Of a stretch of 24,761 nt of DNA, positions 1 to 19,481 are shown piece after piece; the first letter of the stretch is position 1; each line of letters starts with the position of its first letter. The notes beneath the pieces are model-generated. The model did no database searches. It was not told where the DNA came from and was given only the letters and a program-made list of their open reading frames with translations. The stretch spans positions 1-24,761 of IMG/VR virus record IMGVR_UViG_3300047557_001448; one strand, written 5' to 3'. The translations under genes and the position numbers were made by a program. The DNA is from a virus.

Positions 1-320
1 TTGTTGGGCCAGTGTCTGGCTGCCTGCTGGGAGGCGGAGAGCATGGCGCGGTAGATTCTGGCCGCTGCGTTCTGATCGTTTTCAGTTGAACCGCTAATCC
101 CGTATTGCTTTGCGCAATCAAAGAAGGTTTCGCCACCTACGATATACATTTCTGCGGATATTTCTTCCGCCGCCGCCTCCCGCTTGGCGAGGGCTGCGCG
201 GAGTCCCATGATTTCAGCGGCGGCAGCAAGGCAGAGTTTATGGTAGGCGGTTACCTGCGCCGTCCGTCCCGCCGCTGAACCAAACCCGTCTTCAAGTCTG
301 GCAACTATGTCGTCGCTCAC
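1..320 (-). CDS. Hypothetical phage protein, 3' end beyond window
   Basis: The reading frame stays open for 106 codons from a GTG at 320 to the left edge, so the gene is cut by the window. GGAG lies about 8 bases before the GTG. The start overlaps the stop of the upstream gene in a GTGA, as in the rest of this operon. The visible part is alanine-rich with a predicted helical segment around residues 22-58, followed by a patch reading GGETFFDCAKQYGIS. I do not recognise the family. As the last visible gene of an operon of small accessory genes, it is most likely a host-takeover or accessory protein, but that is inference from position only. Confidence 0.6.
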   Translation of the reverse strand, partial: MSDDIVARLEDGFGSAAGRTAQVTAYHKLCLAAAAEIMGLRAALAKREAAAEEISAEMYIVGGETFFDCAKQYGISGSTENDQNAAARIYRAMLSASQQAARHWPN

Positions 321-997
321 GTTGCGTCTCCTTTGGCGAGGATGGCGGCTTCCAGTATGCGGCGCATTTGCGGACGCGTTACGCAGTCTTTCGATTCGTC
401 CCAATCAACTAACGAGCCAAGCGGGTCGGCTTCTTTCAATGCCGCTACCAGCATCGCTTCCGTAACCACATCCCGCGCATCGCCGGCAGTCTCCGGGGCA
501 GGATGCGCTTCCATAGCGTCATAGCCGCAATCTTCAAGCACATTCAGCAAGTCGTAAATACGGCGCAAGAAACCCTGCGAAATATCGTTGTCGATAGTGA
601 CTCGCCCGTCTGCGTGTTCCTCGCAATCTTCCATCATCAGTGCGACTTGCCGAACGAGGCTATTCAGACAGGGAGCGTACTTATCGGGGGCAGGCTGCGC
701 TGGGGCGGCTGCGTAGCGCTCTACAGCAGTATCGAACCCGCGAGTAAATCCTGCGTTGAAGATATGCCTATTGCTCGCCATATCGAGGCTGCTATGGCGA
801 GCAGAAAAGTAGTCTTCTTCGCTGTTTGTTGCATACGCCTCACGCAATGCGATATGGCTTTCGCGGTAAATCGGCACCGCCCGCCGCTGCGCTTCCAGCG
901 TGTCGCAGACTGTGCGGATGGCTTCCGTATAGTCAACGCGAAGGTGTGGCGCGTAATGGCGAAGTTGCGCAATCGCTTCGTCTTCCGTCATCTTCAT
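317..997 (-). CDS. Hypothetical phage protein (226 aa)
   Basis: A 226-residue protein of unknown function. The ATG at 997 overlaps the previous stop as ATGA, and GGAG sits 8 bases upstream; a second in-frame ATG lies two codons later. The protein is acidic and mostly helical by composition, with a short Ala/Pro-rich linker near residues 94-105 and another near 163-170 that may separate three small domains. The last segment (AMLVAALKEADPLG...) looks like a small helical module. No catalytic motif or membrane segment is visible. It is translationally coupled to both neighbours in the leftward operon. Confidence 0.6.
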   Translation of the reverse strand: MKMTEDEAIAQLRHYAPHLRVDYTEAIRTVCDTLEAQRRAVPIYRESHIALREAYATNSEEDYFSARHSSLDMASNRHIFNAGFTRGFDTAVERYAAAPAQPAPDKYAPCLNSLVRQVALMMEDCEEHADGRVTIDNDISQGFLRRIYDLLNVLEDCGYDAMEAHPAPETAGDARDVVTEAMLVAALKEADPLGSLVDWDESKDCVTRPQMRRILEAAILAKGDAT

Positions 998-1650
998 GGC
1001 TTCTGCTCCAGGTTCAGGTTCGGGCGGGAGATGAGTTCGATTAATTCGTATTCACCGCTAATTGAATGGCGGTCGTTGTAAATCAGTCCTGTACGGCATT
1101 CCTTGTAGCGCCGCCACTCTACCGGCGCACCCTCCACCAGCGCCTTGCCGCGGGCGAGTTCCGCCGTCAGCGTTGCGACTTGTTCTATCAGCGAGCCTAC
1201 ATTCTCTCGCGCCTCTGCATAATCAAGCCCCTTAAATCCGGCCTCATTGAGTGCAGCAACCAGCGGATACACATGCTCGGAAAAGTTCACAGTTTGCGCG
1301 CCAACAATACTGTTGCGGATTGCATTCACCTTATCCGCCATTGCCGTCAGCGTTGCGACTTGGGCGCGGAGGGCTTGCTTTTCGTCTGCCATCGCAATCA
1401 GTTGGTCAGCGGCTCGCTTGGCAATCTCGTCAAGCCTGTCGGCGCGCACATATGGAATGCACACCGATACCGGGTCAACGCCGCTGAACCACGTCACCTC
1501 CTGCGTATCATCAAACTCGTACAGCCAGTCCTCGCTTTCGTCGCCAATGGCAAGGCCGATGCGCTCTGGTGCTGACTTGTAAAGCGGCAAGGTCGTTTTG
1601 TCGGCCGCGTCAATGTCGATCATGTCTTCCGATTCGTCGCTCACAGTCAC
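994..1650 (-). CDS. Hypothetical coiled-coil phage protein (218 aa)
   Basis: A 218-residue protein of unknown function. It starts with GTG at 1650, overlapping the previous stop in a GTGA; a second GTG two codons later (1644) is an alternative start. Residues about 75-150 are rich in Ala, Leu, Gln and Glu and look like a coiled coil, containing the phrase QVATLTA twice. A 20-bp DNA repeat encodes both copies (1163-1182 and 1343-1362), exactly 60 codons apart. The C-terminal part (WRRYKECRTGLIYNDRHSI) is of a modular kind often seen in phage accessory proteins. No enzyme motif is visible. Confidence 0.6.
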   Translation of the reverse strand: MTVSDESEDMIDIDAADKTTLPLYKSAPERIGLAIGDESEDWLYEFDDTQEVTWFSGVDPVSVCIPYVRADRLDEIAKRAADQLIAMADEKQALRAQVATLTAMADKVNAIRNSIVGAQTVNFSEHVYPLVAALNEAGFKGLDYAEARENVGSLIEQVATLTAELARGKALVEGAPVEWRRYKECRTGLIYNDRHSISGEYELIELISRPNLNLEQKP

Positions 1651-1952
1651 TCTCCTTTGCCAGATTCGGTTGGGCGGATGGCGGCGTCGATGGCTTCGTC
1701 AAATGTCGGGCACTCGCTGATAGGCTCAAGCGAGACGAAGTAATGCGCGCGGTACAAAGGCAGCAAAGTCTTGACTGCGCCATCCTTTACGTTGTCACGG
1801 ATAAACCGATACCGCCCCGCATCCTTCTCCAACTCCATAACCCTCGCTTGCAGGGCGCGGATGGCGGCGGCTGACTTTGTGTGCAGTTCCGAATGTTTCG
1901 CCAAGTAATCCAGCGAGAAAAGCAACTCCGCGTACTCGTTCTGATCGCTCAC
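1647..1952 (-). CDS. Hypothetical phage protein with DAxRYRxxR-type motif (101 aa)
   Basis: A 101-residue protein that starts with GTG at 1952. An AAGGAGG ribosome site lies a few bases upstream, inside the end of the preceding small gene. The centre reads LEKDAGRYRFIRDN, matching a motif (DAxRYRWLR-like) that recurs in many phage hypothetical proteins of unknown role. It is predicted helical in the first half. It is coupled to both neighbours, with a GTGA at each end. Function unknown. Confidence 0.65.
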   Translation of the reverse strand: MSDQNEYAELLFSLDYLAKHSELHTKSAAAIRALQARVMELEKDAGRYRFIRDNVKDGAVKTLLPLYRAHYFVSLEPISECPTFDEAIDAAIRPTESGKGE

Positions 1953-2071: not shown

Positions 2072-2259
2072 TTGCGGAACCCCGCGTATTTGCGTGCCAG
2101 ACGTTCAACGTCTTTGTCCGTTATGTCTTCCTGATCGGTGTCTTCCATCAGCGACTTGCGGGCCTCGGCGCGGTGCTCGTCTGTAACCTCGGGATCGTCG
2201 CCGTAGTCGGGCGGTGCCATGTTGTCGTAGGCGGCTTGGAGTCTGGCGAACTTGCTCAC
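2068..2259 (-). CDS. Small acidic hypothetical protein (63 aa)
   Basis: A 63-residue, strongly acidic protein with a basic C-terminal end (VERLARKYAGFRK). It starts with GTG at 2259, overlapping the upstream stop as GTGA, and ends in an ATGA with the membrane-peptide gene. The N-terminal helix (MSKFARLQAAYDN) is followed by an acidic stretch (PPDYGDDPEVTDEHRAEAR). It has no recognisable domain. Many small acidic early phage proteins bind host proteins, but nothing in the sequence proves that here. Confidence 0.6.
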   Translation of the reverse strand: MSKFARLQAAYDNMAPPDYGDDPEVTDEHRAEARKSLMEDTDQEDITDKDVERLARKYAGFRK

Positions 2260-2522
2260 GATTGCACCCCGTTCGTCAGGTAGCGCAACTCCATAATGCG
2301 GGCCTTGATGTTCTGCACCGCGTCGTGCGCCTTTGCCTGGATTTCCTCGGCTGCGGCTTCGAGCGCGGCTACCTGCGATTCGATGACGGCGGATTCTGCC
2401 AGCGGCGGGAATGTTACGTCTACGTACTCGCTGGTGCGGATGTAGGTAGGGCAGCCATCAAGTGACGACGTTGATACAGACTCGCCGCCGTACTCAATGT
2501 GCGTGAACTTTGCAATTCTCAT
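2256..2522 (-). CDS. Hypothetical coiled-coil protein, first gene of the leftward operon (88 aa)
   Basis: I chose the ATG at 2522 because AAGGAGAGAG lies just upstream and the candidate leftward promoter ends about 30 bases before it. The frame is open further upstream (to 2822), but that extension runs through the control region and into the opposite-strand RNA ligase gene. The 88-residue protein has a beta-rich N-terminal part (MRIAKFTHIEYGGESV) and an alanine/glutamate-rich helix from about residue 44 to 75 (SAVIESQVAALEAAAEEIQ), likely a coiled coil. Function unknown. Confidence 0.65.
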   Translation of the reverse strand: MRIAKFTHIEYGGESVSTSSLDGCPTYIRTSEYVDVTFPPLAESAVIESQVAALEAAAEEIQAKAHDAVQNIKARIMELRYLTNGVQS

Positions 2523-2558
2523 GTCTCTCTCCTTTCGTGGTTGCCTTGCGGTAGACGG

Positions 2559-2587
2559 ACTATCCGCCCTCGGTTGCTTGCCTGCAA
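2559..2587 (-). promoter_or_regulatory. Candidate leftward sigma-70 promoter
   Basis: Read on the minus strand, TTGCAG (2587-2582) and GATAGT (2564-2559) are separated by exactly 17 bases. Transcription would start near 2552 and reach the first start codon at 2522. The -35 box occupies bases 2-7 of the operator-like palindrome at 2573-2588. Confidence 0.55.
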
Positions 2588-2588
2588 C
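2573..2588. promoter_or_regulatory. Operator-like palindrome O1
   Basis: The 16-bp sequence GTTGCTTGCCTGCAAC has 5-bp inverted arms (GTTGC/GCAAC) around a 6-bp centre. It matches the copy at 2606 at 14 of 16 positions and begins exactly 33 bp before it. A half-site GTTGC lies another 33 bp upstream at 2540. It covers the leftward -35 box. Confidence 0.55.
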
Positions 2589-2605
2589 TACCGTCCGTCG
2601 GAATC

Positions 2606-2621
2606 GTTGCGCGCCTGCAAC
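2606..2621. promoter_or_regulatory. Operator-like palindrome O2
   Basis: GTTGCGCGCCTGCAAC has the same inverted arms as O1. It covers the rightward -35 box (TTGCGC, 2607-2612). A copy differing at one base lies inside the ssb gene at 5664-5679. The binding protein is unknown; the HTH proteins encoded at 3195 and 7512 are candidates. Confidence 0.55.
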
Positions 2622-2636
2622 GGGCGGCGTTATAGT
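2607..2636 (+). promoter_or_regulatory. Candidate rightward sigma-70 promoter for the RNA-ligase operon
   Basis: TTGCGC at 2607-2612 is followed after 18 bases by TATAGT (2631-2636), or after 17 by TTATAG. The expected start of transcription is near 2643, 25 bases before the ligase start codon. The -35 box lies at bases 2-7 of palindrome O2, mirroring the leftward promoter in O1. Confidence 0.6.
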
Positions 2637-2667: not shown

Positions 2668-3198
2668 ATGGACTTTAAAGGCTTCCCGAAAATGGCAAGA
2701 CTCTCGCGTGAGTGCATTATCACCGAGAAGATCGACGGCACGAACGCGCAGGTCTGCATTACGCCAGATGGCGGTTTCTTTGTCGGCAGCCGCACGCGCT
2801 GGATTACGCCGGAAGATGACAATTTCGGATTTGCACGGTGGGCTTACGAACGCAAGGACGAACTGATGGCGCTTGGCGTTGGTCAGCACTTTGGCGAGTG
2901 GTGGGGCCAAGGCATCCAGCGCGGCTATGGCATGACGGAGCGCCGGTTTTCGCTGTTTAACGTCACGCGCTGGGGTGATTCCCGGCCAGAATGCTGCCAT
3001 GTGGTTCCGACGCTTTACCGTGGGATGTTCAGCGAACACGAAATAAGCATCACGCTTGATACCTTGTCATTGGGCGGAAGTGTTGCTGCGCCCGGTTTTA
3101 TGAAGCCGGAAGGCATCATCATTTACCACACGGCCGCCGGAATCGGATTCAAGAAGACCATCGAAAAAGACGAACAGCCAAAAGGTAAAGCGCAATGA
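2668..3198 (+). CDS. Minimal RNA ligase (Rnl2-like nucleotidyltransferase, 176 aa)
   Basis: It is predicted to seal RNA ends using ATP through a covalent enzyme-AMP intermediate. The nucleotidyltransferase motifs appear in order: motif I EKIDG at residues 20-24 with the probable nucleophile Lys21; a probable Ia at SRTRW (41-45); GEWWGQGIQRGY (76-87); FSLFNV (94-99); motif IV PEGIII (147-152); and motif V FKKTIEKDE (161-169). At 176 residues it holds little beyond the catalytic domain and lacks the C-terminal domain of T4 Rnl2, as do other small phage RNA ligases. The ATG at 2668 is preferred (GAGG about 10 bases before); the frame is open upstream but would cross the promoter. It is the first gene of the rightward operon, and its stop overlaps the HTH gene start (ATGA). 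Phage RNA ligases are known to repair cleaved tRNA; whether this one does is unknown, and no end-healing kinase is visible nearby. Confidence 0.85.
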   Translation: MDFKGFPKMARLSRECIITEKIDGTNAQVCITPDGGFFVGSRTRWITPEDDNFGFARWAYERKDELMALGVGQHFGEWWGQGIQRGYGMTERRFSLFNVTRWGDSRPECCHVVPTLYRGMFSEHEISITLDTLSLGGSVAAPGFMKPEGIIIYHTAAGIGFKKTIEKDEQPKGKAQ

Positions 3199-3395
3199 AG
3201 TTCACAACAATGGAAAAACTCCTGCGACTGGTAGCCCGCGCCCGCGCTGCCGGATCGTCTGACGCTCACGTTGCGGCGTATATCGGCGTGAACCGTTCCA
3301 CGCTGTCCCGCTGGCTGTCTGGCGAGACTGATCCGAACGCTACTACGGATAGCGTCAACAAGATTTCGGCGGCTTATCGGAGGGGGTGGAAATGA
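3195..3395 (+). CDS. Small helix-turn-helix transcription regulator (Cro/CI-like, 66 aa)
   Basis: A predicted DNA-binding protein. Residues about 23-43 (DAHVAAYIGVNRSTLSRWLS) have the spacing of a helix-turn-helix: the first helix HVAAYIG, a turn at VN, and the recognition helix RSTLSRWLSG. The length suits a single-domain repressor. It is the second gene of the operon started by the promoter inside O2, so it is a natural candidate for autoregulation through O1 and O2, but there is no direct evidence. Coupled upstream and downstream by ATGA overlaps. Confidence 0.75.
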   Translation: MKFTTMEKLLRLVARARAAGSSDAHVAAYIGVNRSTLSRWLSGETDPNATTDSVNKISAAYRRGWK

Positions 3396-3631
3396 AAACC
3401 GCCCAACTCCGCAAACTTCGCGGCGGCTACTTCGCTAAATTCTACACGCTCGGATGGCACCGCATCGACGCGACACTTTACTGGCAACATCAATCAGAGC
3501 CGTCTCCGTATATCGAAACTACCGAGTATCAATCGCCAGCCGATACGATTGACGCGTGGCTCGGTGTTGCGTTCTGGTGCGCGCTGGCTGTCGGTTGTGC
3601 GCTGTTGGGGTATGTGGTGGTGCTGTCGTGA
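3392..3631 (+). CDS. Small protein with C-terminal membrane helix (79 aa)
   Basis: The ATG at 3392 is chosen because GGAGGGGG ends about 5 bases upstream and the ATGA overlaps the HTH stop; a GTG at 3386 lies inside that ribosome site. The first 50 residues are soluble and aromatic-rich (GGYFAKFYTLGWHRIDATLYW). Residues about 55-79 (AWLGVAFWCALAVGCALLGYV) form a single membrane helix at the very C-terminus, so the soluble part probably faces the cytoplasm as a tail-anchored protein. Function unknown. Confidence 0.65.
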   Translation: MKTAQLRKLRGGYFAKFYTLGWHRIDATLYWQHQSEPSPYIETTEYQSPADTIDAWLGVAFWCALAVGCALLGYVVVLS

Positions 3632-3801
3632 CCCGCCGCCACAAAGACGCCCCGCCATTCCTCGGCAGACTGTACGGTGACGCGCTGCTACAGGCTTACG
3701 CGGACTGTGCAAGCATCGCCGACCTCTGCTTGCAGGCCGGCGTCAAGCGGTGGGAGTTGCATCGGTGGGTTAGGGAGGCGCGGAATGGCAGACCGGAATG
3801 A
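3628..3801 (+). CDS. Small basic hypothetical protein, possible HTH (57 aa)
   Basis: The GTG at 3628 overlaps the preceding stop in a GTGA. The frame extends further upstream only as an out-of-frame shadow of the membrane-protein gene, so the short form is preferred. The 57 residues include CASIADLCLQAGVKRWELHR, which has the pattern of a helix-turn-helix (helix, Gly turn, second helix with Lys/Arg/Trp). DNA binding is therefore possible but unproven. It overlaps the next gene by 17 bases. Confidence 0.5.
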   Translation: MTRRHKDAPPFLGRLYGDALLQAYADCASIADLCLQAGVKRWELHRWVREARNGRPE

Positions 3802-5144: not shown

Positions 5145-5154
5145 TGCGGGCCTT
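5133..5154. terminator. Hairpin terminator between convergent operons
   Basis: AAGGCCCGC and GCGGGCCTT form a perfect 9-bp stem with the 4-base loop TAGT. On the minus strand the stem is followed by a T-run (CCTTTTCC), and on the plus strand by TTGTTGT, so it may work in both directions between the operons ending at 5144 and 5179. Confidence 0.75.
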
Positions 5155-5178
5155 GTTGTGTAGGGTTAGTATGTCCGC

Positions 5179-5427
5179 CTAGTCTTCGGTAATTCCCCCT
5201 GCGCGTATTCTTTCAACCATCGCAAAGTGACCACGAAGGCTTCCTTCCGATGCCTCATCCTGCGCGATATGACCGCCTACGCGGTTCTTGTATTCATCAA
5301 GTCTCCACACAAGAGTTTCTGCATACCTTCCACCTTCCATTGATGAACTATCCCGGTCTATTGTAGACACAGAGTAGAAGTCTTCACCGTGGCATACTGT
5401 TGTAGCGGCAAGAAACTTGCTAGCCAT
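5179..5427 (-). CDS. Hypothetical protein, last gene of the recombination operon (82 aa)
   Basis: Two in-frame ATGs occur at 5433 and 5427. GAGG sits 7 bases before the 5427 ATG and almost touches the other, so 5427 is preferred. The 82-residue protein contains a Ser/Asp-rich stretch (STIDRDSSSMEGGRY), then a mixed helical part ending in a charged tail. No domain is recognised. It is separated from ssb by about 180 bases containing a strong stem-loop, so its expression may be regulated separately. Codon use is more AT-rich than in the operon upstream. Confidence 0.55.
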   Translation of the reverse strand: MASKFLAATTVCHGEDFYSVSTIDRDSSSMEGGRYAETLVWRLDEYKNRVGGHIAQDEASEGSLRGHFAMVERIRAGGITED

Positions 5428-5461
5428 ACCCATCCCTCACTGGTAGTTAAAAACGCGTCTT

Positions 5462-5537
5462 CTGCATTCGTGGATGGTGGCGACCCGTAGGCCGTCGCGC
5501 GCCTGAACCGTTTGTAACTCACCACCCACGAATGCAG
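5462..5537 (-). repeat. Long stem-loop (18-bp inverted repeat) between ssb and the next gene
   Basis: CTGCATTCGTGGATGGTG (5462-5479) and CACCACCCACGAATGCAG (5520-5537) are inverted copies with one mismatch. In a minus-strand transcript the mismatch becomes a G-U pair, so the stem is fully paired in the direction of the operon. The 40-base loop holds a second possible hairpin (GCGAC/GTCGC, 5480-5498) and, at 5494-5509, a degenerate copy of the O1/O2 palindrome. It has no T-run, so it is not a standard terminator; an RNA processing or regulatory element is more likely. Confidence 0.65.
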
Positions 5538-5610
5538 GCTATCTCTAGCCAACACCCGCCGGACACATCACCCATCGGCAGTCCGACGCCGCCGCCCGTC
5601 CGTGGGCTAA

Positions 5611-5982
5611 TCAGAATGGAATCGGCTCCTCGTCGCTGTCCGCCGGCTTATCACTCGCCACCGGTTGCGCGCTTGCAACATCATCACGCTTCCCGCCGGC
5701 CAATGTCAACGACGTAACGCGCACACTGATCTTTGCCGGATAGTCACCCTTGGCAGGCGTCAACGACACCTCGCCACTAACAACAACCGTCTGGCCTTTC
5801 TTCAGGTACGGAGATACTGCCTTGCCGCCCGCACCCCAGTACGCGCAGTCAATCCAGTGCGTCTGCTTCTTGTCGCCGTAGCCGCTGGTGCAGGCCACGG
5901 AAAAGTTACACACGTCCGTACCGCCGACCGTGTTGGTACGGCAATCGCCGCCCAGGTTACCGCTGAATGTGAACACGTTCAT
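5611..5982 (-). CDS. ssb: Single-stranded DNA-binding protein
   Basis: A 123-residue OB-fold SSB. The N-terminus (MNVFTFSGNLGGDCRTN) and THWIDCAYWGAGGKAVSPYL (41-60) followed by KKGQTVVVSGEVSL (61-74) match the core strands of bacterial and phage SSBs. A flexible linker (about 97-115) leads to the acidic tip DSDEEPIPF, the conserved peptide that recruits exonucleases, helicases and other partners. It coats single strands made by the exonuclease and helicases encoded nearby. The ATG at 5982 overlaps the preceding gene stop (ATGA). Codons 102-107 in the linker contain the palindrome GTTGCGCGCTTGCAAC on the plus strand, a near-copy of the operators at 2573 and 2606. Confidence 0.93.
   Translation of the reverse strand: MNVFTFSGNLGGDCRTNTVGGTDVCNFSVACTSGYGDKKQTHWIDCAYWGAGGKAVSPYLKKGQTVVVSGEVSLTPAKGDYPAKISVRVTSLTLAGGKRDDVASAQPVASDKPADSDEEPIPF
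5664..5679. promoter_or_regulatory. Third copy of the GTTGC-N6-GCAAC palindrome, inside ssb
   Basis: GTTGCGCGCTTGCAAC differs from O2 (2606-2621) at one base. It lies in the part of ssb that encodes the tolerant linker, where sequence is least constrained. It could be a third binding site for the same regulator, or chance. Confidence 0.35.
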
Positions 5983-6611
5983 CCGAAAGTCTCCCCGTCT
6001 TCTGGTTGTGCGGCTGGTGCCACGATTGTTTCATCAGTTTCATGCACTTCAATCGGTGCCAGACCTTCAAGCACCTTCAACTGCTCGGCGGACAGTACGC
6101 CGGTCTTCTGGCATTGCGCGATGATCTGCTGCAACGTCATCGTTCCTTCCTTCAGTGCCTTCGCCATCGCGGGCACGGCCTTCTGGAACTTGTCCGCCGG
6201 ATATGCTGTTTCGTCAACAACAAGCAGCGGCACATGGTACGGCTCGGTCTTCTTCTGGTTGATCCGCAACGTGAACGCCAGACCGCGTTCGGAAATGTGC
6301 GACATTGCGCGAATGCGAATACCGCCAACGTCGCCTCCTGCGTACTTCACTGACGGTTCGTAGTAAATCTGCACGCGCTTGCCGATCCATGCTGTGGACT
6401 CGCGCCCCCATGCGCCGGCCAGCACGCGCAGCATGCCTTTGCTCGGTTTCCACGGGCGGCCGTTGTCGCCATCGAAATACACAAACACCGGCTGCTGTGG
6501 CGTCTTGTGAACCTTCACGTCACGGATGCGGATGACCGGTTCCGCACCGACGATATCCAGCGCGTTCAGTTGGTCGCTTTTTGCCTCAAGTGCAAACGAT
6601 ATGTCAGCCAT
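5979..6611 (-). CDS. Unknown recombination-operon protein between exonuclease and SSB (210 aa)
   Basis: A 210-residue protein of no family I can name. The first 130 residues look beta-rich (PVIRIRDVKVHKTPQQPVFV, WIGKRVQIYYEPSVKYAGG, GLAFTLRINQ), consistent with an OB-like or similar fold. A helical segment follows (about 140-182: KFQKAVPAMAKALKEGTMTL) and then an acidic disordered tail ending EDGETFG. The position between a RecE-like exonuclease and SSB is where many phages encode a single-strand annealing protein, so it is a candidate for that job or for an exonuclease partner. The start overlaps the exonuclease stop as TAATG, and its stop overlaps ssb as ATGA. Confidence 0.7.
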   Translation of the reverse strand: MADISFALEAKSDQLNALDIVGAEPVIRIRDVKVHKTPQQPVFVYFDGDNGRPWKPSKGMLRVLAGAWGRESTAWIGKRVQIYYEPSVKYAGGDVGGIRIRAMSHISERGLAFTLRINQKKTEPYHVPLLVVDETAYPADKFQKAVPAMAKALKEGTMTLQQIIAQCQKTGVLSAEQLKVLEGLAPIEVHETDETIVAPAAQPEDGETFG

Positions 6612-7423
6612 TACGCAATCTCCCCTGCCATTTCGTTATCCATCTGCGCGATGAACCAGCCAGGCATCGCAATCATGTGTGGGCTGCCGTCGATTCCCGG
6701 CCATTCGTCACGCGCCAGACAGTCGGCGTAGCGGTTTAGGTCGGCTCGGTACAGTTTGCGGCCGTACTCGACAACATCGTCTGGCAGGCGCACGAACGCG
6801 GTGCAGTGCGGCGCGTCTGACTCAACGACTGCAAACGACCAGTCGGTCAGCGTTTCGCCAGTTTCCCACTTGAACACGTCAGCGTAAAACGCCTGCTGTA
6901 CGTGGTAGCGGTAGTTGACGATTGACTTACCGAACGCGTCGTCGCTGGCATCGGCTGCGGTTTTCAACTCAACGGCGCGGTTGCTGGCCGTCAGCCAGTC
7001 AAACCGTGCGCGAACCTGCACACCGGTTACGGGGTCGGTCGTGAAAAACGATATTTCCGCCTCACCAGCGGACGTCAACAGTGCGCGCATGTGCGGGTTA
7101 CCGTTGACGGCTTCCTGCATGGCAACAATGCGGTCTGCCTCGGTCTGCGTGAGACAGAACTCCTCGCCCTTGGTTTTGACGGCTTCCTTCCAGACAGTCG
7201 ACCGGCGGTCATCAACCGGCACGATGACGAACTGTTCGCGGAACGCTGCCGGCTCCAAAATTGCCGCGTGCGTTGCGCTGCCGATGGTCATTGCGCGTGT
7301 CGGTCCCTTGCGTGGTGCGTAACGAAAATGCGCCGGGCTGCGCGCAATCAAATTAAGGCCCGTCTTGCTGATCGAGTCGTTGCGGCTGTGATAATCCGCG
7401 TTTGACATACCATGATAGATCAT
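6611..7423 (-). CDS. RecE/exonuclease VIII-like PD-(D/E)XK nuclease (270 aa)
   Basis: Predicted 5'-3' double-strand DNA exonuclease that makes single strands for phage recombination. The motifs are GSATHAAILEP (48-58) with His52, Asp142 in RFDWL, Glu152-x-Lys154 in VELKT, and the helix motif YHVQQAFYADV (173-183), all in the order of the RecE-type PDDEXK family. The start is taken at the ATG at 7423, which has AGGAG 8 bases upstream and begins MIYHGMSNADYH, typical of the family; the longer open frame would run through the divergent promoter and into the Cro gene. It is the first gene of the leftward recombination operon driven by the TTGACG/TATAGT promoter. Confidence 0.87.
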   Translation of the reverse strand: MIYHGMSNADYHSRNDSISKTGLNLIARSPAHFRYAPRKGPTRAMTIGSATHAAILEPAAFREQFVIVPVDDRRSTVWKEAVKTKGEEFCLTQTEADRIVAMQEAVNGNPHMRALLTSAGEAEISFFTTDPVTGVQVRARFDWLTASNRAVELKTAADASDDAFGKSIVNYRYHVQQAFYADVFKWETGETLTDWSFAVVESDAPHCTAFVRLPDDVVEYGRKLYRADLNRYADCLARDEWPGIDGSPHMIAMPGWFIAQMDNEMAGEIA

Positions 7424-7447
7424 TGTGTTTCTCCTGTGGTGCGCCGG

Positions 7448-7477
7448 TTGACATAGCCAGCGGACGGACGCACTATA
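7448..7477 (+). promoter_or_regulatory. Candidate rightward promoter for the replication operon
   Basis: A perfect -35 box TTGACA (7448-7453) is followed at 18 bases by ACTATA (7472-7477), a weak -10, with TATAAG two bases further on. The -10 region overlaps the opposing promoter and the palindrome. The exact -10 is uncertain. Confidence 0.45.
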
Positions 7478-7500
7478 AGCGGACTTATACACCGCGTCAA
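7472..7500 (-). promoter_or_regulatory. Leftward sigma-70 promoter for the recombination operon
   Basis: On the minus strand TTGACG (7500-7495) and TATAGT (7477-7472) are separated by exactly 17 bases, close to consensus. Transcription would start near 7465, about 40 bases before the exonuclease start codon. Confidence 0.7.
7474..7489. promoter_or_regulatory. Operator-like palindrome in the divergent promoter
   Basis: TATAAG and CTTATA form a perfect 6-bp inverted repeat around CGGA. It covers the leftward -10 box and spacer and sits 22 bases before the Cro-like gene, so it is the likely operator for that protein. Confidence 0.5.
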
Positions 7501-7511
7501 CAGGGGGACGA

Positions 7512-7700
7512 ATGAAAAAACAGGAAGCCATGGAACTGCTAGAGGCGCGAACGCAGACCGAACTGGCCGACCGGCTCGGCATATCGCAGGCTGCCGTTTC
7601 GCAGTGGTCGGAGGAACTGCCAGAACATGCGGTCAGACGCGTGGAGTCGCAGTTGTACCGGCGGATCAACAAGCGGGGGCGTCGTAATGCAACTCCGTGA
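7512..7700 (+). CDS. Cro-like repressor (62 aa)
   Basis: A small DNA-binding regulator of the P22/lambda Cro type. Residues about 14-33 (TQTELADRLGISQAAVSQWS) are a clear helix-turn-helix, followed by ELPEHAVRRVESQLYR, the pattern seen after the recognition helix in P22 Cro. AGGGGG lies 6 bases before the ATG. It heads the replication operon and faces the recombination operon across a palindrome it probably binds. No CI-like partner is encoded on the other side, unlike lambda. It overlaps the helicase start by 14 bases. Confidence 0.85.
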   Translation: MKKQEAMELLEARTQTELADRLGISQAAVSQWSEELPEHAVRRVESQLYRRINKRGRRNATP

Positions 7701-9108
7701 CGACCAACACGAACTGCTGAACGCCGCCCGCCAAGCACTGCGCACGCATCGGCGCATCATCATGCAGGGCAGCACGGGGTTCGGTAAGACGTTTATTGCG
7801 CTGACGATCATCCGCAATGCCATCGGCAACGGCAAGCGCGTCCTGTTCCTATGCCATCGCCGCGAACTGGTACGCCAGTCGTCGCGGGCGTTCTGGCTGC
7901 AAAACGTGCCGCACGGGATGGTTATGGCCGGCCGCGCTATGTCCAACACGCAGGCGAACGTCGGTGTCATCAATACCGTCGTGAACCGCATGGACAAGAT
8001 GCAAAAACCCGACATCATCATCGTGGACGAAGCACACCGGTCGGTATCACCCATGTACCTGCGCGTGCTCGAGCAATGGCCGGACGCCATTGTCATCGGG
8101 CTGACGGCAACGCCAGAACGGACGGACGGTAAGGGGCTAGGTGCCGCTGGCTACACGGACATCGTGACCGCTCGCCCTATGCGCTGGCTGATCGACAACG
8201 GCATCCTGTCAGAGTACGAAATCATCGCGCCGGCATCGTCGCTGTCGCTGGCTGGCGTCGATATCAGGGCCGGCGACTACGCCACCGACCAACTGGCTGC
8301 GGCCGTCGATAAACCGACCATCACGGGTGACGCTGTACAGGCGTACATCGACCACGCGAACGGCGAGCGGTGCATGGTGTTCTGCGTCACTATCGAACAC
8401 TCGCAGCATGTGGCCGAATCGTTCCGGGCGCGTGGCATACCCTGCGAACACGTTGACGGGAACCACACCGACGCCGAGCGTGACGCGATATTCGGCCGGC
8501 TGCGGTCTGGCGAGACGCTTGTCGTCACATCGGTGCAACTGGCTATCGAGGGTCTGGATGTGCCTGCTATCAGTGTGGTGCAGTTCCTGCGCCCTACCGC
8601 GTCCCTGATCGTGTACCTACAAGCCATCGGGCGCGGCCTGCGCGTCGAACCCGGCAAACGGCGGGCGCTGATTCTGGATCAGGTCGGCAACTGGGCGCGC
8701 CACGGGCTGCCTGACGATGTGCGCGAGTGGTCTTTGGAAGGCCGCAAGTCACGCAAGCGCGGCCCGAACGACAACGCGCCGGACGTGAACGTCAAGCGGT
8801 GCGCCAAGTGCTACGCCGTGTTCCGTACCGGGCCGGCCGTCTGTCCGTCGTGCGGCGCTCCGGTTCCTGGCGGTGGCCGTGACGCGCCGGAAACGGTTGA
8901 CGGCACACTGGTCAAGATTGACCAGGACATGGTTCGCCGCGAACAACGTCGCGCACAGGGCGGGGCGCGCACTATCGAAGACCTTGTTGCGCTTGGCGTC
9001 CGTAGCGGATTCAGTCATGCAGACCGGTGGGCTGCCAACGTCTTTGCTGCACGCGCCGGCCGTAAACCGACACCGGAAGAATACTCACGGGCGAGGGCTG
9101 CATTGTGA
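7687..9108 (+). CDS. SF2 DEAD/DEAH-box helicase with zinc-ribbon (473 aa)
   Basis: An ATP-dependent helicase or translocase of superfamily 2. Walker A GSTGFGKT is at 28-35, DEAH at 114-117, motif III TAT at 140-142 (GLTATPER), motif V around 280-293 (TSVQLAIEGLDVPA) and motif VI QAIGRGLR at 312-319. A four-cysteine zinc ribbon (Cys372, 375, 386, 389) follows the helicase core, then a basic helical tail. It starts at the ATG at 7687 with GGGGG about 7 bases upstream; the open frame upstream overlaps the Cro gene out of frame. Probable role: origin opening, fork or recombination helicase. It is coupled to the nuclease gene by a GTGA. Confidence 0.9.
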   Translation: MQLRDDQHELLNAARQALRTHRRIIMQGSTGFGKTFIALTIIRNAIGNGKRVLFLCHRRELVRQSSRAFWLQNVPHGMVMAGRAMSNTQANVGVINTVVNRMDKMQKPDIIIVDEAHRSVSPMYLRVLEQWPDAIVIGLTATPERTDGKGLGAAGYTDIVTARPMRWLIDNGILSEYEIIAPASSLSLAGVDIRAGDYATDQLAAAVDKPTITGDAVQAYIDHANGERCMVFCVTIEHSQHVAESFRARGIPCEHVDGNHTDAERDAIFGRLRSGETLVVTSVQLAIEGLDVPAISVVQFLRPTASLIVYLQAIGRGLRVEPGKRRALILDQVGNWARHGLPDDVREWSLEGRKSRKRGPNDNAPDVNVKRCAKCYAVFRTGPAVCPSCGAPVPGGGRDAPETVDGTLVKIDQDMVRREQRRAQGGARTIEDLVALGVRSGFSHADRWAANVFAARAGRKPTPEEYSRARAAL

Positions 9109-9455
9109 ACGCCGAAACCGCACTGCAACGCGAAATCATGCTCGCGCTATCCGAGGCTGGCTGCACCGTCTGGCGCAACAACACGGGGGCCGCACACAAC
9201 GGGCGCGTCATCCACAAATCAGGCAGCACGGTCACGCTGGCCGACTCTCGCATGATCACCTACGGACTGTGCGTAGGGTCGGCCGACCTGATCGGCATAC
9301 GGCCGGACGGTCGGTTCATCGCCATCGAAGTGAAAACACCGAAAGGCCGCGTCACGTCGGAACAGGAACGGTTCATATTCCACATCCAACTGATGGGCGG
9401 CATCGCAGGCGTTGCGCGCTCCGTCGATGATGCACTAACCTTGATTCGCGGATAG
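9105..9455 (+). CDS. VRR-NUC domain nuclease (116 aa)
   Basis: A small PD-(D/E)XK nuclease of the VRR-NUC family. Catalytic elements are GSADLIGI (62-69, Asp65) and FIAIEVKTPKG (about 74-84), giving the E-x-K signature, followed by TSEQERFI. Stand-alone phage VRR-NUC proteins are thought to act as structure-specific or Holliday-junction nucleases. The GTG start overlaps the helicase stop (GTGA), so the helicase and nuclease are probably made in step and may work together. Confidence 0.88.
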   Translation: MNAETALQREIMLALSEAGCTVWRNNTGAAHNGRVIHKSGSTVTLADSRMITYGLCVGSADLIGIRPDGRFIAIEVKTPKGRVTSEQERFIFHIQLMGGIAGVARSVDDALTLIRG

Positions 9456-9530
9456 GGCGGCCACCCGAAAAGCACCTTGTCAGTGCCTTCCGCGACCCTT
9501 ACTGACTACCCAACGACTAGGGGAATAACA

Positions 9531-11765
9531 ATGTTTCCGCAAGAACTGCAATCGCTCCGTCAGTGGCTTGTCTGGAAGTTCGAGCCAAACGGCGACCGCA
9601 AACCGCGCAAGGTTCCATACTACGTCAACGGTAGCCGGCGTTCTGGTAAGCAGGGCGGCGACGATGACCGCGCCGCACTGACCGACTACGCGACCGCCTG
9701 CGCCGCGCTTAACGGATACGAGGGGCTTGGTTTCGCGTTCCTGCCGGGCGACGGTCTGGTCGGTATCGACCTTGACGGCATCACCGAGTCACCCGAACGC
9801 GCAGACCGGGCGCAACGCATCATTGATGCCTGCCAGTCGTACACCGAACACAGCCCTTCCGGTAACGGCGTCCACATCATATGCCGTGGCGAGACGGAGA
9901 CATTCAAGTCCAACATACTCGGCATCGAAGTGTTCAGCGGCCGGCAGTTCTTTACGATGACCGGGCAGCCATACGGCGAGCCGCGCCCGCTCGTTGACGT
10001 GTCGGCGGAAGTGTTCGCCAAGATCAAGCGCACCGTCCGCGCCAAGGCACACGACAGCACTGCACCCGTCAGCGCGCCCGTTGTATCGACCGGCGACAAA
10101 ATCCATGACGCGCTGGCCTACGTGTCTCCAGACTCCGGCTACGAAGAATGGCTGCGCGTCGGCATGGCACTGCATTCCGAACTTGGCGACGGCGGCCTTG
10201 GCGTCTGGGATATGTGGTCGTCGCGGTCTGCCAAGTACCCTGGAAACCGCGAAGTCGCATCGCACTGGCGTTCGTTCCGGTCTGGCGGCGGCATCACCAT
10301 CGCCACCCTGTACGGCATGGCCAAGGACAACGGATGGAAACCGCCGCGCCGTGAGCCGCCACCGGTACGCACGCCGTCCGATGCCCCCACATCGGAACCG
10401 ACCATCATTGACCCGAAGTCGCCACTGAACACTGCCCGCCAGTTTGTCGCTGAACGGCACACAGACCGCGATGTGGCTACGCTGCATTTCTGGCGCGGCG
10501 ACTGGTATCGGTGGGCCGGGCACTACTACAGCATGATGGAAGAGGACGAACTCAAGTCCCGACTGTACGGGTTCCTTGAACGCTGCCTTCAATACGACAA
10601 GACCGGCAACCTTGAGCCGGTCAAACCCTGCATCAACATCGTCGGTGAGGTGATGGCCGCCTTGCGTGCCACGCAACTGCTGATGATTGAGGACGCGCCG
10701 GCATGGATCATCCAGCCAGACGTACCGATTGCGCCGTCGAACATCATCCCGTGTGGCAATGGGTTTTTGATCATTTCCACACGTGAGGTAATACCGTCTA
10801 CGCCTAAACTGTTCGTCACCGCATCGCTTGACTTTCCCGTCCCTGATAACCCGCCTGCGCCGGCAGAGTGGCACCGGTTCCTTGCCGGCGTCTGGCCGGA
10901 CGATCCCGGCAGCATCGAATCGCTGGCCGAGGCCATCGGCTACATGCTCACCGACCAGACCGACCAACAGAAGGCGTTCATGCTGGTCGGCCCGAAACGC
11001 TCCGGCAAGGGCACCATCCTGCGGATCATTGAGGCGCTTGTCGGCCGACACAACAAAGTTTCCCCGTCGTTCAACTCCCTCGGCACCGATTTCGGCCTTG
11101 CGCCGCTGATCGGCAAGCGCATCGCCATGATCAGTGACGCCCGCCTGTCGCACAGGGCGGATCAAGCGTCGATCACCGAGAACATACTCCGCATCACAGG
11201 CGAGGACTCGGTATCAGTGAACCGCAAGTTCAAGGACGCATGGAACGGCAAACTGCCGACCAAGTTCCTTGTCGCCACCAACGAACTGCCGTCGTTCTCC
11301 GATGCCTCCGCCGCGCTGGCGTCGCGGTTCATCATCTACCGGTTCACGCGGTCGTTCATCGGTAGCGAGGATTTTGGGCTGACCGACAGGATCAAGTCTG
11401 TACTGCCAGGCATCTGGATGTGGGCGCTGGATGGCCTTGAGCGCATGCGCACCCGTGGCCGGCTGCTACAGCCCGTCAGCGGGCAAGGACTGGCAGACGA
11501 ACTGGAAGAAATGACAAGCCCCATCATGCAGTTCGTTGACGACGCCTGCATGATCGGCGGCGCGTTCTCCGTACCGGTCAGCGACCTGTTCACCGTCTGG
11601 CTGGAATGGTGCAAGGACAACGGCCGCGACCATCCCGGCACCGTACAGGTGTTCGGTAAACAGTTGACCGCCGCGTTTCCGACCATTACGAAGGCCAGAC
11701 TGACCGACGACGGCAACCGTGTACGGTCGTACTCCGGAATCCGCGTCAGAACGTCCTATGACTGA
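9531..11765 (+). CDS. Bifunctional primase / SF3 replicative helicase (744 aa)
   Basis: The phage replication initiator-type protein. The N-terminal 165 residues are an archaeo-eukaryotic-type primase domain with GIDLDG (78-83, metal-binding Asp80 and Asp82), SPSGNGVHI (108-116) and EVFSGRQFFTMTG (133-145). Residues about 190-270 resemble a PriCT-2 domain (YEEWLRVGMALHSE). The C-terminal half is a D5-type superfamily 3 helicase: Walker A GPKRSGKGT (487-495), the IAMISDA region (531-537) and sensor ATNELP (582-587). The ATG at 9531 with AGGGGA 7 bases upstream is preferred; a TTG at 9477 would add 18 residues. The iteron-like DNA directly downstream is a candidate target. Confidence 0.93.
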   Translation: MFPQELQSLRQWLVWKFEPNGDRKPRKVPYYVNGSRRSGKQGGDDDRAALTDYATACAALNGYEGLGFAFLPGDGLVGIDLDGITESPERADRAQRIIDACQSYTEHSPSGNGVHIICRGETETFKSNILGIEVFSGRQFFTMTGQPYGEPRPLVDVSAEVFAKIKRTVRAKAHDSTAPVSAPVVSTGDKIHDALAYVSPDSGYEEWLRVGMALHSELGDGGLGVWDMWSSRSAKYPGNREVASHWRSFRSGGGITIATLYGMAKDNGWKPPRREPPPVRTPSDAPTSEPTIIDPKSPLNTARQFVAERHTDRDVATLHFWRGDWYRWAGHYYSMMEEDELKSRLYGFLERCLQYDKTGNLEPVKPCINIVGEVMAALRATQLLMIEDAPAWIIQPDVPIAPSNIIPCGNGFLIISTREVIPSTPKLFVTASLDFPVPDNPPAPAEWHRFLAGVWPDDPGSIESLAEAIGYMLTDQTDQQKAFMLVGPKRSGKGTILRIIEALVGRHNKVSPSFNSLGTDFGLAPLIGKRIAMISDARLSHRADQASITENILRITGEDSVSVNRKFKDAWNGKLPTKFLVATNELPSFSDASAALASRFIIYRFTRSFIGSEDFGLTDRIKSVLPGIWMWALDGLERMRTRGRLLQPVSGQGLADELEEMTSPIMQFVDDACMIGGAFSVPVSDLFTVWLEWCKDNGRDHPGTVQVFGKQLTAAFPTITKARLTDDGNRVRSYSGIRVRTSYD

Positions 11766-11768
11766 TCC

Positions 11769-11863
11769 GCGTCCGCGCAAACCCGGACGGCGTCCGCGCA
11801 GCGTCCGCGCAAACGCGAAAATAAAAACGGCTGAAACCCTTGGGAGAGTAAGGCGCGTCCGCG
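11769..11863 (+). repeat. Iteron-like direct repeats (GCGTCCGCGCAAAC)
   Basis: Copies begin at 11769 and 11801 (both GCGTCCGCGCAAAC), 11790 (GCGTCCGCGCA) and 11855 (GCGTCCGCG). The spacings of 21, 11 and 54 bp are close to whole turns of the helix, which suits a protein binding one face of the DNA. Two inverted partial copies lie at 11966-11984. Tandem repeats next to a replication gene are typical of origins. Confidence 0.55.
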
Positions 11864-11954
11864 TGTGGTACAGCACGGTACAGTATTTTTAACACGTAAG
11901 GAGGGGAAGTCTTATTAGTAGAGAGAGGACGTGTATGTAATAGGGGCGGCTACA

Positions 11955-12095
11955 ATGGTATTGGTCGCGGACGTGCGCGGACATCGCGGCCAGCAACTCA
12001 CCGAACACGTGTACGCGACCGTCCGTCGCCTCCCCAAAAATAATCCACACAAACGCCGAAACGATGTGTATAGTTACCACATCGGCAGCAAGTGA
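11955..12095 (+). CDS. Possible 46-residue ORF in the origin region
   Basis: An ATG at 11955, with AGGGG about 8 bases upstream, opens a 46-codon frame that ends just before the next gene. The product would be basic and His/Arg-rich (e.g. VYATVRRLPKNNPHKRR). It overlaps the inverted iterons and the candidate promoter, so it may be a chance frame. Low confidence. Confidence 0.25.
   Translation: MVLVADVRGHRGQQLTEHVYATVRRLPKNNPHKRRNDVYSYHIGSK
12062..12084 (+). promoter_or_regulatory. Candidate promoter and operator before the small-gene cluster
   Basis: CGATGTG and CACATCG are perfect 7-bp inverted arms around 9 bases, and TATAGT (12069-12074) starts directly after the left arm. The -35 region is poor (CACACA at 17 bases), so an activator may be needed, or the site may be repressed by a protein binding the dyad. 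Confidence 0.45.
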
Positions 12096-12123
12096 CGCCG
12101 ACAACCAGACAGGGGAAAGGATC

Positions 12124-12312
12124 ATGATCAAGGTAGACGACCTGCAAGTAGGCGACCGCGTAATGTTCAACAAGGCCTGCCCTGTTTATGTCCGAGAACT
12201 GAAAGCAGACCGCGTTATGGTCTCAAAGCAGCAAGACGGCATGGCGCTTTTTTCTATCCCTACAACGTCGGCAAACTTTGAAGACCTTCGTAATCGTGTG
12301 GAGTTGGCATGA
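12124..12312 (+). CDS. Small hypothetical protein (62 aa)
   Basis: Starts at the ATG at 12124 with AGGGGAAAGG just upstream; the frame is open further left but has no ribosome site there. The 62 residues look like a small beta-barrel (KVDDLQVGDRVMFNK ... PVYVRELKADRVMVSKQQ), similar in outline to KOW/SH3-like folds. Function unknown. First gene after the origin region; coupled to the next by ATGA. Confidence 0.6.
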   Translation: MIKVDDLQVGDRVMFNKACPVYVRELKADRVMVSKQQDGMALFSIPTTSANFEDLRNRVELA

Positions 12313-12521
12313 GCATTGACGAAGAAATTGACGAGGCCTTTGATTATTGGGTCTTTCAGCACAGAAAGTTTATGCTTGATAACAATGAGCGGATTGCGGC
12401 ATACGCACATCGGAGCAGACTTGATTTTGAGGCAGGTTACCGCGCTGCCGTTGAGTCAGCCAAGAAAACCGAATACAAGTACCAGACATTTGACGGCAGA
12501 GTAATAATTCCAAGTGTTTAG
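12309..12521 (+). CDS. Small acidic hypothetical protein (70 aa)
   Basis: Starts in an ATGA overlap at 12309. The 70 residues are mostly helical (DEEIDEAFDYWVFQHRKFM, then SRLDFEAGYRAAVESAKK). The pattern FEAGYRAA resembles a segment found in other small phage accessory proteins. Codon use is AT-richer than in the replication genes. Function unknown. Confidence 0.55.
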   Translation: MSIDEEIDEAFDYWVFQHRKFMLDNNERIAAYAHRSRLDFEAGYRAAVESAKKTEYKYQTFDGRVIIPSV

Positions 12522-12553
12522 GGTTTTCCTAATAACTCAAAAAGGAAACGACA

Positions 12554-12778
12554 ATGACTTTTGAACTCTTTGAGACCGGATCAGACGCACGCGCCGCCAG
12601 CCGTTGTGTTTGCACTGTACGCAATGGCGTTTTCTACGATGCGTTCAACGGCCAGTACCGCCCGCAGACTGACGACTTCGGCAACACTGTCGGCGTCCGT
12701 CCGATTCCTGCCGCCAATGGCTACCATCACCAAGGCTTCGGACTGCTGTACCTGTACGAACGCCTGCAACTCGCCTAA
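12554..12778 (+). CDS. Small hypothetical protein (74 aa)
   Basis: The ATG at 12554 has AAAAAGGAAACG about 6 bases upstream. The 74-residue product has two cysteines near the N-terminus (RCVCTV) and an aromatic, Gly-rich C-terminal half (NGYHHQGFGLLYLYERL). No family is recognised. It is followed by a 7-bp hairpin. Confidence 0.55.
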   Translation: MTFELFETGSDARAASRCVCTVRNGVFYDAFNGQYRPQTDDFGNTVGVRPIPAANGYHHQGFGLLYLYERLQLA

Positions 12779-12784
12779 CCACCC

Positions 12785-12803
12785 GCCCGCTTAACCAGCG
12801 GGC
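12785..12803 (+). terminator. Weak hairpin, possible partial terminator
   Basis: GCCCGCT and AGCGGGC form a 7-bp stem around TAACC directly after the 74-residue gene. There is no T-run, so it may instead be an mRNA-stabilising element. Confidence 0.3.
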
Positions 12804-12825
12804 AAACCAATACAAGGACGCTAAC

Positions 12826-13080
12826 ATGCGCATCACCGTCATCCTTGCATCCGTATGGCTCACCGCCTGTGCCACAACCCCGCAGCCCATCATCGACCGC
12901 CAAAACACCCGCTACGACCAGTGCGTCGACCGCATCCACGAACAGGCGGCCAAGCGACCCGTCAACTGGTCGCTGGAAATCGACGCCTGCATGGGGCGCA
13001 AGGGCGAGGAATACGACCGATACCAGGCTGCCAAGGATTCCAAGTTGCCGCCGCGCTGGGCTGTGCAGGGTTCCAAGTGA
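12826..13080 (+). CDS. Small predicted lipoprotein (84 aa)
   Basis: The N-terminus MRITVILASVWLTACATT is a lipoprotein signal peptide with lipobox LTAC and the acylated cysteine at residue 15; the mature part would be about 70 residues, tethered to the membrane. Two further cysteines (33 and 55) flank a helical hairpin and may form a disulfide in the periplasm. AAGGA lies 8 bases before the ATG. Phage lipoproteins include receptor-blocking exclusion proteins (Cor, Llp) and the Rz1 spanin; it is not proline-rich and no lysis gene is adjacent, so exclusion or envelope modification is more likely. Coupled to the next gene by GTGA. Confidence 0.7.
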   Translation: MRITVILASVWLTACATTPQPIIDRQNTRYDQCVDRIHEQAAKRPVNWSLEIDACMGRKGEEYDRYQAAKDSKLPPRWAVQGSK

Positions 13081-13229
13081 CCACACCAACCCCCAAACCC
13101 CGCACCACCCGCCGCAACTACACCGTCACGCCCGCAGACCATGCCGCGCTGCTGGCTGTGGGCGATGGGAACGCATCACGCGGCATACGCCGACTCATCG
13201 CGCTTGCGGCCATCAACGAACACCGCTAA
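13077..13229 (+). CDS. Ribbon-helix-helix-like small protein (50 aa)
   Basis: Starts with GTG at 13077 overlapping the lipoprotein stop. The 50 residues begin with a basic, Pro/Thr-rich tail, then RRNYTVTPADHAALLAVGDG as a strand and helix, and NASRGIRRLIALAA as a second helix. This order matches the small CopG/Arc-type repressors common in phages. It may regulate neighbouring genes; its target is unknown. Confidence 0.55.
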   Translation: MTTPTPKPRTTRRNYTVTPADHAALLAVGDGNASRGIRRLIALAAINEHR

Positions 13230-13241
13230 ACTCAAACCTTC

Positions 13242-13293
13242 GCCAGCCCTACAGCACACTCCAGCCAACCGCAAAAGGCTGTACGTGGCTGGC
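13242..13293 (+). promoter_or_regulatory. Leader hairpin just before the GroES-like gene
   Basis: GCCAGCC (13242-13248) pairs with GGCTGGC (13287-13293), and TACAGC (13250-13255) with GCTGTA (13278-13283). This makes a 13-bp stem interrupted by a 1x3 internal loop, with a 22-base loop. A second CCAGCC (13261-13266) offers a competing pairing with either GGCTG. The stem ends 7 bases before the AAGGA ribosome site. Confidence 0.55.
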
Positions 13294-13311
13294 AACTCAC
13301 AAGGACGCATC

Positions 13312-13689
13312 ATGGCCTTCCGCGCACTTCACGACATCATCATCGTCAAGCGTGAATCTACCGACTCCATCATTGAGATCGTCGGACACAAGGAACACAT
13401 CGGCACCGTGCTGGTAGCAGGCCCAGGCAAGTACTGCCAGAACAAGGAAACCGGCGCAGAGTGGTTCGTCCCGATGACAGTCAAGGCCGGCGACCGGATC
13501 ATGTTCAGCCATCGGGCCGGAATGGAAGTCACCATCGACGGCGAGAAAGTCCTGTCCATGCACGAAGCCGACGTTATCTGCGTACTTGAGCCAGACGCCG
13601 CCGTCAGCATGACCGACGATTGGCGGCAGGAAGCCTGCGACGTTGTGGGGACTTACAACGTACACGGCCAGAAGGCTGTGAGGGTGTAA
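13312..13689 (+). CDS. GroES-like co-chaperonin (125 aa)
   Basis: Matches the Cpn10 fold in order: FRALHDIIIVKRES (first strand, 3-16), a mobile-loop region (17-30, IIEIVGHKEHI), GTVLVAGPGKY (31-41), VKAGDRIMFSHRAGMEVTIDGEKVL (57-81) and EADVICVLE (85-93), each corresponding to conserved GroES positions. It has an extra C-terminal tail of about 30 residues with no counterpart in host GroES. Phage co-chaperonins such as T4 gp31 replace host GroES to let GroEL fold the capsid protein, and here the gene stands directly upstream of packaging and head genes. ATG at 13312 with AAGGA 6 bases upstream; the longer upstream frame lacks a site. Its stop overlaps the next start (TAATG). Confidence 0.85.
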   Translation: MAFRALHDIIIVKRESTDSIIEIVGHKEHIGTVLVAGPGKYCQNKETGAEWFVPMTVKAGDRIMFSHRAGMEVTIDGEKVLSMHEADVICVLEPDAAVSMTDDWRQEACDVVGTYNVHGQKAVRV

Positions 13690-17391: not shown

Positions 17392-17463
17392 CCGAATCGA
17401 ATATAGACTTGACTTTGCTAGAACTTACCGGCCAGTCAGACCGGGGTAAATCGTGGGTATCCC

Positions 17464-18270: not shown

Positions 18271-18276
18271 TTTGAC

Positions 18277-19479: not shown

Positions 19480-19481
19480 AC

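What the first reader, a model, noticed from the sequence alone, without database searches (positions are those of the whole stretch)
2540..2636. Divergent switch with each -35 box embedded in a twin palindrome
Two 16-bp palindromes (GTTGC-N6-GCAAC at 2573 and 2606) lie exactly 33 bp apart, with a half-site GTTGC another 33 bp upstream at 2540. The leftward promoter (TTGCAG, 17 bases, GATAGT) has its -35 at bases 2-7 of O1; the rightward promoter (TTGCGC, 18 bases, TATAGT) has its -35 at bases 2-7 of O2. The symmetry suggests one regulator silencing both operons, with about three helical turns between sites allowing cooperative binding. This is a compact two-way switch without a visible CI gene.
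Basis: partly seen in the sequence, partly recalled or inferred. Interest (0 to 1): 0.72.

Follow-up and report, generated by a model that had tools for sequence, protein, structure and literature searches.

The report
Phage early-gene operator pair, Cro-like
Two matching DNA docking sites sit between two diverging sets of phage genes, most likely for a small repressor made by one of those sets, so this is a simple self-limiting on/off switch of a well-known kind whose probable repressor can now be named.

Summary
The DNA observation is right. Two exact GTTGC-N6-GCAAC dyads (2573-2588, 2606-2621) lie 33 bp apart between divergent operons, with both proposed -35 hexamers inside them. A third exact copy at 5664-5679 was missed. 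The promoter hexamers themselves score no better than chance. The best reading is a pair of operators for a Cro-like autorepressor, the 66-aa HTH protein at 3195-3395 in the rightward operon. The other HTH protein (7512, P22-Cro-like) has its own different dyad, TATAAG-CGGA-CTTATA (7474-7489), beside its gene. Independent support: phage repressors sharing an SRW/NRW/SKW/TRW recognition helix (named Mycobacterium and Gordonia phages, and metagenomic phages) carry TTGC-N6-GCAA next to their own genes. It is the commonest of 3,328 possible dyads there, usually in pairs 31-37 bp apart. The only relative keeping the right-hand genes (G005) keeps the 33-bp geometry but has changed both the dyad sequence and the recognition helix. 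No CI and no integrase were recognised in the approximately 34.6-kb circular map. The upstream half-site and the cooperativity claim remain unsupported. This is a new member of a known kind of switch; nothing was tested by experiment.

The parts
2573..2588 (.). O1, operator dyad GTTGC-TTGCCT-GCAAC; holds the -35-like hexamer of the leftward promoter
2606..2621 (.). O2, operator dyad GTTGC-GCGCCT-GCAAC; holds the -35-like hexamer of the rightward promoter
2559..2587 (-). weak sigma70-like leftward promoter TTGCAG-17-GATAGT (7/12)
   Evidence: at chance level by score
2607..2636 (+). weak sigma70-like rightward promoter TTGCGC-18-TATAGT (8/12)
   Evidence: at chance level by score
2540..2544 (.). 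GTTGC half-site 33 bp before O1; probably incidental
   Evidence: absent in G005
2256..2522 (-). first gene of the leftward operon (88 aa, no family found), AAGGAG-like ribosome site upstream
2668..3198 (+). first gene of the rightward operon, RNA ligase family
   Evidence: PF09414, phrog_548
3195..3395 (+). predicted regulator: 66-aa Cro-like HTH protein, recognition helix ...VNRSTLSRWLSG
   Evidence: (AlphaFold pLDDT 92.6, four helices)
5664..5679 (.). O3, third exact dyad inside the ssb gene, touching a 10/12 promoter-like site on the - strand; role uncertain
5680..5709 (-). promoter-like TTGACA-18-GATGAT adjoining O3
7474..7489 (.). separate dyad TATAAG-CGGA-CTTATA at the second divergent region, predicted operator of the 7512 protein
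7512..7700 (+). P22-Cro-like HTH protein, probable regulator of the second switch rather than of O1/O2
   Evidence: PF14549, just under its cut-off

Best explanation
O1 and O2 are the operators of a Cro-like autorepressor, the 66-aa HTH protein encoded at 3195-3395. A dimer would bind each TTGC-N6-GCAA dyad and cover the -35 side of the diverging early promoters. As the protein builds up from the rightward operon (RNA ligase, HTH and others), it would shut off that operon and the leftward one together, giving a self-limiting early pulse rather than a lysogeny switch. Shown: the dyads, their spacing and position, the HTH gene in the rightward operon, its predicted fold, and the association of TTGC-N6-GCAA with other phage repressors having an [S/N/T]-[R/K]-W recognition helix. 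Inferred: binding, repression, transcription starts and timing.
For: The dyads are exact, twin and in the only gap between the divergent genes. The HTH lies in the operon that O2 would control and folds as a Cro/C2-type four-helix domain. Finding the HTH in other phages predicts the DNA: L108 (same SRWLSGET helix) has exactly three TTGC-N6-GCAA in 10 kb, all around its HTH gene, against 0.36 expected; L158 has two just upstream. Enumerating all 256 x 13 dyads upstream of 14 related phage repressors ranks TTGC-N6-GCAA first (8 loci, 12 copies), with pair spacings of 31, 32, 35 and 37 bp when one mismatch is allowed. The reverse works in part: a blind scan for twin GTTGC-N6-GCAAC hit three loci (L192, L219, L239) where the adjacent gene is a repressor of that family (helices SKW, SKW, TRW) with three sites each. 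In G005, which keeps the RNA ligase (82%) and HTH (42%), two 16-bp sites CGTACC-N4-GGCA sit exactly at the O1 and O2 positions, 33 bp apart, and match each other at 10 of 16 bases (P about 0.003), while the recognition helix changed from NRSTLSRW to SHVTLRRW. The 7512 protein has its own dyad.
Against: The proposed promoters score at chance level. The window HTH is only weakly similar to the actinophage repressors outside the HTH (best named hits E = 0.1-0.6). Two other hits with similar helices, L159 and Stenotrophomonas phage BUCT702, lack the dyad near their gene. The first G005 site is a poor palindrome (3 of 6). The HTH is the second gene, about 0.6 kb from the sites. Twin GTTGC-N6-GCAAC also occurs in unrelated settings such as terminase small-subunit and replication genes.
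Confidence: 0.62

Rival explanations
1. O1/O2 are operators for a repressor that the phage no longer encodes (its lost CI) or that a resident prophage supplies; the phage keeps them as relics or is subject to superinfection immunity.
For: Elsewhere TTGC-N6-GCAA marks operators of temperate-phage immunity repressors; no CI or integrase is recognised here.
Against: A fitting HTH is encoded in the regulated operon, and in G005 the operator and the HTH helix have changed together, which a relic would not do.
Confidence: 0.13
2. The dyads bind an activator at weak -35 boxes, in the manner of lambda CII (TTGC-N6-TTGC), rather than a repressor.
For: Weak -35 hexamers and the same 4-6-4 geometry as the CII site (the string TTGCN6TTGC occurs in PMC2629481 and PMC4651098; details of CII from general knowledge).
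Against: The repeat is inverted here, not direct; the dyad centre lies near -29, too close for a usual class II activator (inference from general knowledge); only a weak CII-like hit among many generic HTH hits for the 3195 protein.
Confidence: 0.1
3. The 7512 P22-Cro-like protein or a host regulator binds the GTTGC dyads.
For: 7512 is an HTH regulator of the same phage.
Against: 7512 lies beside its own dyad TATAAG-CGGA-CTTATA, which overlaps a 10/12 promoter and occurs once in the window and not in the rest of the genome.
Confidence: 0.1
4. The twin dyad is a chance or non-regulatory repeat.
For: Some twin appears in 4% of simulated windows, and such twins occur in non-regulatory repeats.
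Against: Placement in the divergent gap, 33-bp geometry kept in G005, and the HTH association.
Confidence: 0.05

Closest known systems
Immunity repressor/Cro operator regions of actinophages (e.g. Mycobacterium phages Spartacus, Jabbawokkie, Yoshi; Gordonia phages BENtherdunthat, Agueybana, Spooky)
   Same: TTGC-N6-GCAA dyads, in pairs 31-37 bp apart, between divergent early operons next to an HTH repressor with an SRW/NRW helix
   Different: Those are temperate phages with integrase and a longer repressor divergent from a Cro gene; here there is one small HTH protein, inside one of the two operons, and no integrase was recognised
Cro/C2 proteins and operators of lambdoid phages P22 and 434
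   Same: Small HTH protein of the same fold class (P22 C2 and 434 Cro among the matches); short dyads with about 11 bp between half-site centres at divergent promoters (geometry of the known operators from general knowledge)
   Different: No CI partner, only two operators in the gap, different half-site sequence
Lambda CII sites, TTGC-N6-TTGC
   Same: Same tetramer and spacer length
   Different: Direct repeat and activation; here an inverted repeat

Membership tests
Cro-type autoregulated operator switch | Small HTH_3/Cro-C1-type protein encoded in the controlled operon | tested here: met
   PF01381 above its cut-off, four-helix model
Cro-type autoregulated operator switch | Twofold symmetric operators overlapping divergent early promoters | tested here: inconclusive
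   Dyads exact; promoters at chance level
Cro-type autoregulated operator switch | The protein binds the operators and represses | not testable with these tools
   Needs binding and reporter assays
Lambda-type CI/Cro lysogeny switch | A CI-type repressor gene and an integration function in the same phage | tested here: not met
   None recognised in window plus sister contig; several small proteins have no family
TTGC-N6-GCAA repressor group (actinophage immunity repressors) | TTGC-N6-GCAA dyads beside the repressor operon | tested here: met
   O1, O2
TTGC-N6-GCAA repressor group (actinophage immunity repressors) | Sequence similarity along the repressor beyond the HTH (VEAFVAAGYL region) | tested here: not met
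   Window protein ends before it; so it works like them but is not filed as a member
Lambda CII-activated promoters | Direct repeat TTGC-N6-TTGC flanking the -35 | tested here: not met
   Inverted repeat with the -35 overlapping the left arm

The most novel reading that the evidence does not exclude
A phage with no recognisable CI carries two independent Cro-type autorepressor switches with unrelated operator codes (TTGC-N6-GCAA for 3195 and TATAAG-N4-CTTATA for 7512), the first with a distant third operator at 5664 that could allow a 3-kb loop as with lambda OL/OR; and the half-site code TTGC is shared by distantly related small HTH repressors, with G005 showing operator and recognition helix changing together.
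Probability: 0.3. Interest if true: 0.5.

Novelty: new member of a known kind. Interest (0 to 1): 0.36.

Why it matters
It gives a testable protein-operator pair for an uncultivated phage from sequence alone, and a usable rule: phage HTH repressors with an [S/N/T]-[R/K]-W recognition helix tend to sit beside TTGC-N6-GCAA. The pair window/G005 is a natural case of operator and repressor specificity drifting together while the 33-bp layout stays fixed.

Tried and rejected
A scan for close relatives of the whole window in named phages found nothing. HTH relatives of the window protein: none in viral contigs with the single protein, one with profile A1 besides G005, none in genome contigs. Ligase relatives (80 loci) and Erf-like relatives (49 loci) do not keep the switch region, apart from G005. 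L026 has a GTTTGC-N5-GCAAAC twin also 33 bp apart in a temperate-looking phage; taken as coincidence of spacing. L004 shares the left-hand gene (36%) but there it follows another gene in the same direction, with no switch. Literature searches found no report of TTGC-N6-GCAA as an operator of these repressors in the held library, which does not show that none exists.

Full report
The window is a 24,761-bp phage contig. A second contig, G001 (31,126 bp), is 99.99% identical from window 5154 to 24761, and its far end matches window 19-1668 at 100%, so the two overlap at both ends and imply a circular map of about 34.6 kb. The virion genes look P22-like (portal phrog_156, head phrog_283; the P22 likeness is from general knowledge), with a helicase, primase, exonuclease VIII, SSB, an RNA ligase, a PAPS-reductase-like gene and a GroES-like gene. 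No integrase and no CI-type repressor were recognised, though several small proteins have no family.

Observation. O1 (2573-2588) and O2 (2606-2621) are exact GTTGC-N6-GCAAC dyads 33 bp apart, in the 145-bp gap between an 88-aa leftward gene (start 2522) and a rightward RNA-ligase gene (start 2668). Among 300 simulated sequences, 13 had any twin of that quality and none had it with loop 6. What is notable is only that the best rightward pair and a joint-best leftward pair both start at base 2 of their dyad. A third exact dyad, O3 (5664-5679), lies inside ssb and touches a 10/12 promoter-like site. About 0.1 exact copies would be expected by chance in the window (inference from the background rate), so O3 is suggestive only.

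Which protein. The genome has two clear HTH regulators. 7512 is P22-Cro-like and sits at a second divergent region (exonuclease operon to the left) that contains the perfect dyad TATAAG-CGGA-CTTATA (7474-7489) within a 10/12 promoter. Relatives G002 and G003 also have a small HTH-like reading frame at this second region. 3195 is a 66-aa HTH_3 protein, second gene of the rightward operon. Its model is confident (pLDDT 92.6; helices 5-18, 23-30, 34-42, 51-63), and its fold matches include P22 C2 and 434 Cro, at modest Foldseek E-values.

Independent test of the pairing. Profile searches with the HTH brought in L108 and L158, metagenomic phages with integrase-like genes (tyrosine-recombinase-like reading frames, named from general knowledge), whose helices read VRQSTVSRWLSGET and VSTSIVSRWLSGEI against VNRSTLSRWLSGET here. 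L108 has three TTGC-N6-GCAA in 10 kb, all within 430 bp around the HTH gene; L158 has two within 170 bp upstream of the gene; the background is 0.36 per 10 kb. L158's protein belongs with the immunity repressors of named Mycobacterium and Gordonia phages. In 14 such loci an enumeration of all dyads with 4-bp arms and spacers 0-12, made without reference to the window, ranks TTGC-N6-GCAA first (8 loci, 12 copies); with one mismatch allowed, neighbouring sites are often 31, 32, 35 or 37 bp apart. Conversely, three loci retrieved by DNA pattern alone (L192, L219, L239) encode members of that repressor family beside the sites. These are the minority of the loci retrieved: a search for HTH genes near the sites found any in 15 of 80, and several of those look like terminase genes.

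Relative G005. This 5,972-bp contig keeps the RNA ligase (82%), the HTH (42%), ssb and the Erf-like gene. At the positions homologous to O1 and O2 it has CGTACCGGCTGGCAAC and CGTACCAAGCGGCACG, 33 bp apart, matching each other at 10 of 16 bases (P about 0.003 at a fixed place). The second is nearly palindromic (5 of 6), the first is not (3 of 6). Its recognition helix differs at positions that would face DNA in this fold (SHVTLRR for NRSTLSR; inference from the 434 and P22 proteins). This is what drift of an operator with its own repressor would look like, but it rests on one relative, which ends just left of the gap.

Mechanism and confidence. The simplest account is a Cro-like autorepressor switching off both early operons after an initial pulse. 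Binding, direction of effect and transcription starts are inferred. The half-site at 2540 is unsupported. Cooperativity is possible (33 bp is about 3.1 turns), but the related systems use 31-37 bp, so strict phasing is not evident.

Verdict. A real and ordinary kind of switch, now with a named candidate protein; interest lies mainly in the operator-helix association and the two separate Cro-type switches in one phage.

Noticed in passing
window 7424-7511: Second divergent region: perfect dyad TATAAG-CGGA-CTTATA (7474-7489) within a TTGACG-17-TATAGT leftward promoter, beside the P22-Cro-like gene 7512; G002 and G003 have an HTH-like reading frame here.
   Followed up: partly
window 5462-5536: Long near-perfect inverted repeat (TGCATTCGTGG.../...CCACGAATGCA) in a non-coding stretch left of ssb; RNA fold z = -3.65, no Rfam match.
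   Followed up: partly
window 5664-5709: O3 dyad adjoining a TTGACA-18-GATGAT promoter-like site inside ssb, pointing left.
   Followed up: partly
window 19-1668 and 5154-24761 against L091/L092: Sister contig of the same phage from another metagenome closes the map to a circle of about 34.6 kb.
   Followed up: yes
window 3628-3801: A further small HTH-like protein (weak HTH_Tnp_1, E = 0.016) in the rightward operon.
   Followed up: no
L168, L174, L188, L190, L210, L234: Repeated GTTGC-N6-GCAAC inside terminase small-subunit-like genes, perhaps packaging recognition sites.
   Followed up: no
L026 3292-3341: GTTTGC-N5-GCAAAC twin, also 33 bp apart, upstream of a rightward gene in a temperate-looking phage.
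   Followed up: no
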